From contig JAGNBF010000061.1 in assembly GCA_018004935.1 (NCBI GenBank), forward strand, positions 1-45,704: a stretch of DNA of 45,704 nt, written 5' to 3'. The notes below the pieces were generated by a model. It saw only the letters and a list, made by a program, of their open reading frames with translations. It was not told where the DNA came from and searched no databases. Numbering within the stretch: the stretch's first letter is position 1; each line of letters opens with the position of its first letter. The DNA comes from Chloroflexota bacterium (GTDB taxonomy: Bacteria > Chloroflexota > Anaerolineae > Promineifilales > Promineifilaceae). Shown one piece after another: positions 3,280 to 8,817 of the stretch. The translations under genes were made by a program, and so were the position numbers.

Positions 3280-3737
3280 GCAACGACAAGAACAGCATAC
3301 AAATAATCCATTTCCATCCAGGCCAGCAGAAATTCATCCACCGTAACAGAAACAGGTTCTGTACTCATATCTGGGTCTAGCAACCACATCACATCTGGTT
3401 CAACCTCAATGACAACGATGGCGTGTTGAAAAAACTCCCCTGACCAATGCGATAACTCGCCTGCCTGAACAAAAACAATCACCGGATAGTCTTGACGCAC
3501 CCATTTTTGAAGCGTATTCAGGTCTCCCTCTTCATAAATCACTTCGATGGGCAATTCTGTGAGGCGTTTAATTTGAAATGTTGGCGTTCCCAGCCCTGGT
3601 TTGATGGACAGTAATCGGGCTAAATGTTCTTGGGTAACATTTAGCCCTTGGTAGGCCAAAACCATTTGGGCACAGGCGGCTAAGCAATAGCCGGTATCAA
3701 TCTGCGCGTGAAAAGGAACGGACAAACGCTTCCCCAT
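3276..3737 (-). CDS. C39-like papain-fold protein (putative cysteine peptidase)
   Basis: 153 aa. The N-terminal motif DTGYCLAACAQMVLAYQG places a cysteine (C18) at the head of a helix, as in peptidase family C39 and related papain-fold proteins; FFQHAIVVI supplies a histidine (H106) and WLLDPDMS an aspartate about 16-18 residues later, giving a plausible Cys-His-Asp triad. There is no signal peptide and no transporter domain, so this is not a bacteriocin-exporter processing domain but a small stand-alone cytoplasmic protein. Its gene overlaps the end of the upstream AF2212-like gene by 41 bp in another frame, implying coupled expression. The pairing resembles a toxin-antitoxin layout, but activity is unknown; it could also be a housekeeping peptidase or an inactive homologue. 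Confidence 0.75.
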   Translation of the reverse strand: MGKRLSVPFHAQIDTGYCLAACAQMVLAYQGLNVTQEHLARLLSIKPGLGTPTFQIKRLTELPIEVIYEEGDLNTLQKWVRQDYPVIVFVQAGELSHWSGEFFQHAIVVIEVEPDVMWLLDPDMSTEPVSVTVDEFLLAWMEMDYLYAVLVVA

Positions 3738-4095
3738 GAGCGATCATCTCCTCGGCTTTTTGTTCGGTGGCGATTACCTGCCCCTGATGAGCATCTACAT
3801 CTACATACCCAATTGGCCCTTGAGGTAGTTGGCCTTTTGCCGTGATAAACGCTCCGAATCGCCAAATGATTTTTTTGTCCGTTTCTGTCAGAAACCCTTC
3901 TTGAGCCACCAGCATGTTGCCCACGTATTCGGCTAACCAACGGGTAGCTTTACGCCGGGCGATTTGTTCGGCTACCACTGGTTCTTTGCCCGCTACGATT
4001 ACGTAAACATGACTCCCTTCTGGCAATTTTGTTTCTGGAGTCAAGTGAATATGCCCTTGTTGAACGACACCTTGATAAGTGTGTACCATTGTCAT
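3697..4095 (-). CDS. Small protein with AF2212/DUF104-like N-terminus (antitoxin-like)
   Basis: 132 aa. The first 35 residues, with YQGVVQQGHIHL followed by LPEGSHVYVIV, resemble the short beta domain of AF2212-type (DUF104) proteins, which often act as antitoxins or DNA-binding partners of small toxins. A charged helical middle (EQIARRKATRWLAEYVG) follows, then a second part with GYVDVDAHQGQVIATEQ that I do not recognise. An AGAGGT lies about 6 bases before the ATG at 4095. The downstream C39-like gene starts inside this one (41-bp overlap). I infer an antitoxin-like partner from the domain and layout only. Downstream of the kinase fragment, it belongs to the same accessory block as xisHI. 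Confidence 0.6.
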   Translation of the reverse strand: MTMVHTYQGVVQQGHIHLTPETKLPEGSHVYVIVAGKEPVVAEQIARRKATRWLAEYVGNMLVAQEGFLTETDKKIIWRFGAFITAKGQLPQGPIGYVDVDAHQGQVIATEQKAEEMIAHGEAFVRSFSRAD

Positions 4096-6661: not shown

Positions 6662-6875
6662 CTTCCCTCCTGAATGTGATGCGTGAATAAAAAAGAAGAA
6701 GGTACACAGAGGGCACAGAGGTGACGACACAGAGATTCACAGAGAAAGACCTGATAGGTTTAATCACTTAGGGTTCACTTGGAATTAAGTTGGGTGGCGC
6801 GGTCAGGAGACCGGCCACAGCAAACTCCAAAGTTGTTTACGAGCGAACCCTTAGGACTTAGCGCCTTTAATTTTT
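6662..6875. repeat. Spacer: CTCTGTG repeat and a dispersed repeat copy next to the IS
   Basis: After a CACAGAG repeat block (about 6697-6745) comes a copy of the dispersed element with core GGTCAGGAGACCGGCCACAG (about 6767-6860). Here it is bounded by imperfect inverted ends, CTTAGGGTTCAC and GCGAACCCTTAGG, which suggests a small non-autonomous mobile element. It abuts the left end of the IS110-type element. Confidence 0.65.
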
Positions 6876-6984
6876 TAACAGGCTCTCGTTGTGTCATTCT
6901 GAGAGTATCCACGAGCGGTGCACTCGTTCAATGAGTGCAGAAACAAGGCTTGCTCCAGATTAGGCTCAGTCGGTATCATTCACC

Positions 6985-7145
6985 TCCGGTTCAGACAGTT
7001 AAAACCGAGACTCCATTGGTGCCATAGTGCCCATTGCTGAGAGTGGTTCCGAATATCAGCGGTTTTGTGAGTGGTGGCCTAGACCCCGTTGAGTAGCCTA
7101 CAAAAAAGAGAAGATAGTCGGGTCTGAACCAAACTAAACCGGAGT
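6985..7145 (+). ncRNA. Candidate bridge RNA (seekRNA) region of the IS110 element
   Basis: IS110-family elements encode a structured guide RNA in the non-coding end next to the transposase; in the IS110 subgroup it lies upstream of the gene. Here the leader is long and self-complementary: GGTTCAGAC at 6988-6996 pairs exactly with GTCTGAACC at 7122-7130, and CTCCGGT at 6984-6990 could alternatively pair with ACCGGAG at 7138-7144, closing a structured region of about 150 nt. Internal GTGGTGGCCTAGACC and TGCCATAGTGCCCATTG could form further stems and loops. The target- and donor-binding loops were not assigned. Position and pairing are seen; the RNA itself is inferred from the family. Confidence 0.5.
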
Positions 7146-7156
7146 GAGTATCAGAC

Positions 7157-8533
7157 ATGAGCAAAGAAAAAAGCCCGAAAAAGCAAACCCAGGAATTCGA
7201 CATTTTACAGCAGATAAACCACAACGCCGGCGGCATTGATATTGGCGCGGAAGAGATTTACGTTTGTGGGCCACCGGGGCGGGCCGAGGAACGCATTCGT
7301 TGTTTTGACACCTTTACGGTTGACCTCAACCGGTTAGCTGACTGGCTACAGACCTGTGGCGTCAAGACGGTGGCGATGGAGTCAACCGGCATCTATTGGA
7401 TACCCTTATTTGACATTCTGGAAAGTCGGGGCATTGAAGTCTGTTTAGTCAATGCCCGGCATCTCAAGAATGTGAGCGGACGCAAGAGTGATGTGGCCGA
7501 TTGTGAATGGCTGTACCAGTTACACACCTACGGTTTGTTACGGGCTTCCTTTCATCCCCCAGACCAGATTCGGGCCTTAAGAGCCTTGGCTCGTCATCGG
7601 GAGATGTTAGTGAGCTATCGTGCCGCCCACATCCAGCACATGCAAAAAGCTTTAGAGCAGATGAATGTGAAACTGACCTATGTTTTGAGCGATATTACCG
7701 GTGTCACAGGTATGACCATCATTCGGGCGATTCTGGCTGGAGAACATGACCCGTACACCTTGGCTCAGTATCGAGATAGTAAGTGCAAGCATAGTCAGAA
7801 AGAAATTGCCAAAGCTCTTGAAGGTCACTATCGCCGCGAACATCTTTTTGCCCTCCAACAAGCGGTTGAACTGTATGACATGTATGGTCAACAGATCATG
7901 GCTCTGGATGAGGAAATGAAAACGATGTACGCTCAGGTCAAGCCACTGGATGAGGGTCATAGCAGAACGACCACACCACCGAAACCCCAACAGGCAAAAC
8001 CACGCAAGAACCAGGCCCACTTTGACCTGAAGACAACGCTGTATCAAATGGCTGGTGTAGACCTGACCCAAATTGATGGCATTGATGCCCTAACCGCCCA
8101 AACGGTCTTGACCGAAATCGGTTTGGATATGAACAAATGGCCGACCGAAAAGCATTTCACTTCCTGGTTGGGTTTATGTCCCAACAATGACATCAGCGGG
8201 GGTAAAGTCAAACGACGCCGCTCGGGCAAAACAACCAACCGAGCGACCACGGCCTTACGGGTGGCGGCCCAGTCTTTGGCCCGGAGTGCTACGACGTTGG
8301 GGGCCTTTTACCGCCGTATCAAAGCCCGTCGTGACGCCCCCAAGGCGATTGTCGCTACTGCTCATAAACTAGCACGCATCATCTATCACATGTTAAAAAA
8401 CCGGACCGATTACGTTGACCGTGGTCTAGAGCATTACCAGGAACAACAGCGTGCCCAGGCGATTAAGCGTCTGCAACGTCAAGCCACAAAACTGGGCTTA
8501 CGTATCGAAGGTTTGTCAGCACCGGTTGCTTAA
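7157..8533 (+). CDS. IS110-family transposase
   Basis: 458 aa. The N-terminal RuvC-like DEDD domain shows D28 (GGIDIGAEEIY), E75 (VAMESTGIYW) and D112/D115 (RKSDVADCEW). The C-terminal Tnp domain has the helix-hairpin-helix-like GIDALTAQTVLTEIG, then LGLCPNNDISGGKVKRRRSGKTTNRATTALR, here quoted by its ends only: LGLCPNNDISGG (S347) and RRRSGKTTNRATTALR, containing the serine-bearing region needed for catalysis in this family. A basic, Pro-rich linker (about residues 270-290, TTPPKPQQAKPRKN) separates the domains. It acts with a guide RNA on element and target DNA. The frame is complete with no frameshift, so the element may be active. It is a typical length for the larger IS110 proteins. Confidence 0.95.
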   Translation: MSKEKSPKKQTQEFDILQQINHNAGGIDIGAEEIYVCGPPGRAEERIRCFDTFTVDLNRLADWLQTCGVKTVAMESTGIYWIPLFDILESRGIEVCLVNARHLKNVSGRKSDVADCEWLYQLHTYGLLRASFHPPDQIRALRALARHREMLVSYRAAHIQHMQKALEQMNVKLTYVLSDITGVTGMTIIRAILAGEHDPYTLAQYRDSKCKHSQKEIAKALEGHYRREHLFALQQAVELYDMYGQQIMALDEEMKTMYAQVKPLDEGHSRTTTPPKPQQAKPRKNQAHFDLKTTLYQMAGVDLTQIDGIDALTAQTVLTEIGLDMNKWPTEKHFTSWLGLCPNNDISGGKVKRRRSGKTTNRATTALRVAAQSLARSATTLGAFYRRIKARRDAPKAIVATAHKLARIIYHMLKNRTDYVDRGLEHYQEQQRAQAIKRLQRQATKLGLRIEGLSAPVA

Positions 8534-8817
8534 CAAACGCCTTGTTTCTGAGTAGGAGTCCGCGACGAAGAATCCCTAACGACTCGTCTATCCAGATTGT
8601 CGGGATTCTTCGCTCCCAAAGCCTCGCTCAGAATGACACGACTCAAAATTCGGTGAAATACACGAGTAGCCAATTTTCTAACAGGCTCTTACGTGCTGTG
8701 GCCGGTGTCCCTACCGAGCCACGACGAACGTGATCAGGGGACCGTCTCAATCAACCCCCATAAATCCTAAACTCTGTGTGTCTCTGTGCCTTCTCCGTGT
8801 TCTCTGTGTTCCTCCCA
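8534..8817. other. IS right end and repeat-bearing spacer
   Basis: 8534-8689 is the trailer of the IS element. 8690-8755 is a diverged repeat (GCTGTGGCCGGTGTCC...) also seen at 32066-32140. 8771-8813 is a CTCTGTG repeat block. No gene is visible. Confidence 0.6.

What the first reader, a model, noticed from the sequence alone, without database searches (positions are those of the whole stretch)
6876..8689. Intact IS110 element with a candidate bridge RNA and 11-bp flanking repeats
The transposase frame is complete and the 270-bp leader can fold with a 9-bp closing stem (6988-6996 with 7122-7130), the expected location of the guide RNA. TAACAGGCTCT at both presumed ends gives testable boundaries. 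Absence of the genome octamer suggests recent arrival. New guide/target pairs are useful for understanding programmed recombination in this family.
Basis: partly seen in the sequence, partly recalled or inferred. Interest (0 to 1): 0.62.

Follow-up and report, generated by a model that had tools for sequence, protein, structure and literature searches.

The report
IS110 transposon with mirror-order guide RNA
This is an intact bacterial jumping gene that carries its own guide RNA for choosing insertion sites; its true ends lie 28 and 136 bases inside those first proposed, and its guides sit in the opposite order to the best-studied relative, IS621.

Summary
TAACAGGCTCT belongs to a palindromic host repeat. 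The element runs 6904-8553 (1650 bp) between two AG core dinucleotides. Three results fix this: joining the flanks gives a 33-bp exact empty site elsewhere in the genome; a 133-bp transposase-less derivative on another contig begins and ends at exactly these bases; about 80 relatives share the same end motifs.

The leader encodes a bridge RNA (6986-7130).

Across up to 69 relatives, guide-DNA covariation shows each loop's 3' side reading the left half of target or donor and, for the target loop, its 5' side reading the right half. This reverses the published IS621 and ISEc21 order and resembles IS1111, although the RNA lies upstream of the gene. A two-base 'handshake' guide also sits on the mirrored strand. 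The transposase branches apart from both IS621 and IS1111.

It is a member of a known kind, in an apparently undescribed variant. The right donor guide is unresolved; nothing was tested experimentally.

The parts
6904..8553 (+). IS110-family element (1650 bp, flanked by AG cores)
   Evidence: Empty site C117:25075; 133-bp derivative on C103 aligns 1-47 and 118-133 to element bases 1-47 and 1635-1650; conserved end motifs in relatives
6902..6903 (+). left core AG
8554..8555 (+). right core AG
   Evidence: left and right core dinucleotides agree in 53 of 61 loci
6893..6901 (+). left target GTCATTCTG
8556..8563 (+). right target GAGTCCGC
6938..6949 (+). left subterminal inverted repeat CAGAAACAAGGC (contains conserved AGAAAC)
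   Evidence: 12-bp perfect match to the reverse complement of 8539-8550
8539..8550 (+). right subterminal inverted repeat GCCTTGTTTCTG
8544..8553 (+). conserved right-end motif GTTTCTGAGT
   Evidence: GTTTCTnAGn at or near the stop codon in most relatives
6974..6979 (+). putative -10 box TATCAT of the bridge RNA promoter
   Evidence: TATAAT-like at the same place in relatives; function inferred
6986..7130 (+). bridge RNA
   Evidence: covariance model R1, 133.6 bits, sole hit in the genome; covariation
6988..6996 (+). closing stem, 5' arm (3' arm 7122-7130)
   Evidence: helix 1
7009..7014 (+). right target guide GACTCC (5' side of loop 1), pairs with top strand 8555-8560 GGAGTC
   Evidence: 6 of 8 in the register set by relatives; only 1 of 69 guides in the set reaches 6 on this DNA, and the window's own guide is in that set; family covariation z 7.0
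7037..7043 (+). left target guide CTGAGAG (3' side of loop 1); identical to 6899-6905 (left target + core + first 2 bases of the element)
7042..7043 (+). handshake guide AG, matches the element's first two bases
   Evidence: family test z 6.6, 0 of 2000 permutations
7090..7096 (+). left donor guide TGAGTAG (3' side of loop 2); identical to the right end + core, 8549-8555
   Evidence: z 8.7
7157..8533 (+). IS110-family transposase, 458 aa; D28, E75, D112, D115, S347
6859..6903 (.). left part of the host palindromic repeat that the element split (contains the 11-mer 6876-6886); not part of the element
   Evidence: same repeat on C103
8554..8687 (.). right part of the host repeat (its 11-mer runs to 8689); not part of the element

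Best explanation
An intact IS110-subgroup insertion sequence (long-transposase branch) that moves by RNA-bridged recombination. The transposase (RuvC-like DEDD domain plus catalytic serine domain) binds the 145-nt bridge RNA made from the left end. [quoted passage not shown] Loop 2 reads the joined ends of the excised circle: its 3' side pairs with the right end plus core. Strands are exchanged at the AG core. The last two bases of the left target guide pair with the first two bases of the element after exchange. Here the element went into the GTCATTCTG-AG-GAGTC site of a palindromic repeat. Shown by sequence: boundaries, core, RNA family, three guide-DNA pairings, handshake covariation. Inferred: transcription, circular intermediate, catalysis, trans-mobilisation of the C103 derivative. 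Unresolved: the right donor guide.
For: Empty site identical over 33 bp to the joined flanks, reversed-pattern control 0. A deletion derivative with the same base-exact ends in another copy of the host repeat. RNA structure: 97.6% of cells paired, 16 pairs with compensatory changes, 0 of 500 shuffles as high on any measure. The model finds the RNA upstream of the gene in 84 of 87 sources at E below 1e-4, though trained on only 18. Left guide matches its own left flank better (8.3 of 11) than shuffled guides (6.5) or other loci's guides (6.0). Loop 1 5' side vs right target, top strand: z 7.0. Loop 2 3' side vs right end, bottom strand: z 8.7, and 5.8 without the A6 group. Handshake z 6.6 and 6.8. 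Invariant G-U pairs fix the transcribed strand as +. Catalytic residues are conserved.
Against: Single copy in this genome, so no recent transposition is seen here. Loop 2 5' side shows no convincing pairing with the left end (z about 2). The loop 1 5' side signal is weak without the A6 group (z 2.0, n 15). Relatedness among loci inflates the z values. The left flank position in relatives was chosen by guide match, which controls for only by re-optimising the control guides. The window guide differs from its target at several outer positions (ATTG vs CATT).
Confidence: 0.87

Rival explanations
1. The element runs 6876-8689 with TAACAGGCTCT as its ends or target duplication.
For: The 11-mer is exactly repeated and also brackets the repeat on C103.
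Against: On C103 the 11-mers bracket the host repeat while the deleted IS110 sits in its other arm. A full empty site exists inside the 11-mers. Relatives end at GTTTCTnAGn + core.
Confidence: 0.03
2. The bridge RNA uses the published IS621 order (5' side reads left, 3' side reads right), and the mirrored signal is an artefact of relatedness.
For: Some IS621-order diagonals reach z 3.5-4.1 in the full set.
Against: Those diagonals lie at edge offsets and drop to z 2.4 or less without the A6 group, while mirror-order signals remain for both 3' sides (12.1, 5.8). The matches are visible by eye, e.g. L019 TTGCGAGTA, L015 AACTAAGCC, L018 TTTTTCAGCG.
Confidence: 0.05
3. The leader RNA is a 5'UTR regulatory structure (attenuator or translational control), not a guide.
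For: It lies just upstream of the start codon; the transposase gene of another element, ISPpu9, is regulated by small RNAs and its 5'UTR structure (PMC8450116, title and abstract).
Against: Loop sequences covary with flanking DNA and element ends locus by locus, which regulation would not explain.
Confidence: 0.03
4. The element is intact in sequence but no longer mobile.
For: One copy only; the right-target pairing in this copy is 6 of 8.
Against: Open frame, all catalytic residues, conserved RNA, intact ends and subterminal repeats.
Confidence: 0.2

Closest known systems
IS621 (IS110 family; Durrant 2024 PMC11208160, Hiraizumi 2024 PMC11208158)
   Same: DEDD plus serine transposase, RNA in the left end, two guide loops, 2-bp core, handshake guides
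   Different: Distant protein (E 1.5e-7, 458 vs 328 aa), guide order and handshake strand mirrored, core AG or AA rather than CT
IS1111 group (ISEc11, IS4321, IS5075; seekRNA paper PMC11187229)
   Same: Subterminal inverted repeats; top-strand complement precedes bottom-strand match in the RNA
   Different: RNA upstream, not downstream, of the gene; separate transposase branch; model R1 does not hit these elements
ISArsp3 and the IS110 subgroup with 395-455 aa transposases
   Same: Nearest named element in the tree; its upstream region matches model R1 at E 1e-5; length class fits the subgroup described in PMC11187229
   Different: About 31% protein identity; its guide order was not worked out here
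ISEc21 (IS110 type, 358 aa; PMC11187229)
   Same: Upstream guide RNA; target inside IS3-family genes, as for many relatives of this element
   Different: Guide order reported as bottom-strand match first, top-strand match second; smaller transposase cluster (345-385 aa). Sequence not compared here

Membership tests
IS110 family | DEDD RuvC-like domain plus PF02371 domain with SG motif | tested here: met
IS110 family | Non-coding RNA with target and donor loops complementary to flanks and ends | tested here: met
   right donor guide not resolved
IS110 family | No target duplication beyond the 2-bp core | tested here: met
   empty site
IS110 family | Circular intermediate with abutted ends | not testable with these tools
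   no reads or bench data
IS110 group (IS621-like) | RNA upstream of the transposase gene | tested here: met
[quoted passage not shown]
   opposite order
IS1111 group | Subterminal inverted repeats of 7-17 bp | tested here: met
   12-bp perfect pair
IS1111 group | RNA downstream of the transposase gene | tested here: not met
IS1111 group | Transposase in the ISEc11/IS4321 branch, 330-350 aa | tested here: not met
   458 aa; separate branch with support 99/98

The most novel reading that the evidence does not exclude
The long-transposase IS110 subgroup is a third bridge-RNA architecture: RNA upstream of the gene but with guides and handshake in mirror order to IS621. One genome (G278) further carries transposase-less satellites, each with a full bridge RNA retargeted to the right end of the autonomous copy.
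Probability: 0.55. Interest if true: 0.7.

Novelty: new variant of a known kind. Interest (0 to 1): 0.55.

Why it matters
Bridge recombinases are being developed as programmable genome-editing tools, and the published design rules come from IS621-like order. A large, widespread subgroup with mirrored guides and a base-defined donor, core and target offers a new scaffold and a test of whether strand-exchange geometry follows guide order. The roughly 70 natural guide/target pairs listed here can be assayed directly.

Tried and rejected
First boundary estimate (CT core at 6857-6858 and 8688-8689, from flanking dispersed repeats) was dropped: it gives the ends of the host repeat, not of the IS110. 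Rfam at gathering threshold: no hits. The own-genome pattern CATTCTGAGN{0,2}GGAGTC was mis-specified by one G and is uninformative. A related genome at the syntenic site lacks the whole insertion and repeats but is too diverged for a base-exact empty site. Right donor guide: contiguous and cell-wise scans against the left end gave nothing convincing.

Full report
OBSERVATION. The ORF 7157-8533 encodes a complete 458-aa IS110-family transposase with D28, E75, D112, D115 and S347 at catalytic positions; the four acidic residues are conserved in nearly all of 51 aligned homologues, and the serine is Ser in 44 and Thr in 7. It is the only copy in the 8-Mb genome; a second, distant IS110 lies on contig C25.

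BOUNDARIES. Relatives (45-70% identity) share a right-end motif GTTTCTnAGn at or just after the stop codon and AGAAAC about 30-37 bases inside the left end. Applied to the window this gives the element 6904-8553 between AG cores at 6902-6903 and 8554-8555. Prediction: the empty site reads GTCATTCTG-AG-GAGTCCGCG. That 20-mer occurs exactly once, on contig C117, with the reversed-pattern control empty; identity to the joined flanks runs 33 bp, ending at GAAGAATCCC. On C103 the same host repeat carries a 133-bp derivative without transposase or RNA, inserted in the opposite arm and orientation, whose first 47 and last 16 bases align to element bases 1-47 and 1635-1650. The 11-mers are present there too, so they belong to the host repeat. 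That repeat in turn sits between dispersed repeats.

BRIDGE RNA. Alignment of 18 leaders gave a structure of a closing stem, a target-loop stem and hairpin, and a second long stem holding loop 2. Of 28 pairs, 16 show changes on both sides, 97.6% of cells pair, and no shuffle of 500 matches any measure; sliding the partners collapses it. Several G-U pairs are invariant or nearly so, which would be A-C on the other strand, so the RNA is read from the + strand. The covariance model finds the RNA upstream of the transposase gene in 84 of 87 sources at E below 1e-4, only once in this genome, and upstream of ISArsp3 at E 1e-5 but not at ISEc11, IS4321 or IS5075. Folding energy alone is not significant.

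GUIDES. In the window the 3' side of loop 1 (CTGAGAG, 7037-7043) is identical to left target + core + first two element bases (6899-6905); the 5' side (GACTCC, 7009-7014) complements GGAGTC (8555-8560); the 3' side of loop 2 (TGAGTAG, 7090-7096) is identical to right end + core (8549-8555). In relatives the left guide matches its own flank at 8.3 of 11 against 6.5 for shuffled guides and 6.0 for other loci's guides. With the right boundary set independently by the GTTTCT motif, left and right cores agree in 53 of 61 loci. Permutation tests: loop 1 5' side vs right target top strand z 7.0; loop 2 3' side vs right end bottom strand z 8.7; without the A6-target group 2.0 (n 15) and 5.8. Diagonals for the IS621 order are weaker and at edge offsets. 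The two bases after the core in the left guide match the element's first two bases (z 6.6; 6.8 without the A6 group), located without using those bases. This is a handshake guide as in IS621 (PMC11208158) but on the mirrored strand. The right donor guide could not be resolved.

COMPARISON. PMC11208160 (IS621) and PMC11187229 (ISEc21) describe a 5' side complementary to the bottom strand and a 3' side complementary to the top; PMC11187229 reports the reverse for IS1111. The present group has the reverse order with an upstream RNA and, in the window, 12-bp subterminal inverted repeats. Its transposases form a branch with ISArsp3 and two other elements, apart from IS621 and IS1111 references (support 99/98; IS621 entered as a partial sequence, and several branches are long). 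PMC11187229 notes a subgroup including IS110 with 395-455 aa transposases, which roughly fits; the member it tested (ISEc21) belongs to another cluster. Figures showing other bridge RNAs could not be read, so novelty of the order is provisional.

LIMITS. No expression or recombination data. Relatedness of loci inflates z values. Left flanks in relatives were located by guide match, with controls re-optimised in the same way.

Noticed in passing
L099:2878-3313 and 3314-3749; L112 downstream of its transposase gene (genome G278): Tandem 436-bp units (two in L099, one in L112) with left end, full bridge RNA and right end but no transposase. Their left guide (CTCAGG-AA-GT) matches the right end of the adjacent autonomous copy: apparent bridge-RNA-only satellites.
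   Followed up: partly
L142:about 326-472 (contig C103): 133-bp derivative of this IS110 (47-bp left end, 16-bp right end, palindromic filler) in the other arm of the same host repeat.
   Followed up: yes
window 6859-6903 and 8554-8687: Split palindromic host repeat with TAACAGGCTCT near its ends; second copy on C103; may be a mobile miniature element.
   Followed up: partly
window 6762-6854 and 8688-8775: Two dispersed repeat families flank the insertion: about 90 bp on the left, and a palindromic one (TTAGGACTTACG...CGTAAGTCCTAA) on the right with about 40 listed matches.
   Followed up: partly
L035, L052, L062, L069, L074 and many others: Many proteobacterial relatives sit in a CCTAAAA-AA-GGC site that looks like the frameshift site of IS3-family elements, with core AA and AAAAAAC in the left guide.
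   Followed up: partly
L103, L113, L114, L099, L112 right flanks: Right flanks such as AACGCTTTGTTAGGC resemble integron attC sites; some members may target them.
   Followed up: no
L031:2801-5977: Two full elements of this group in direct tandem, sharing a right end-AA-left end junction.
   Followed up: no
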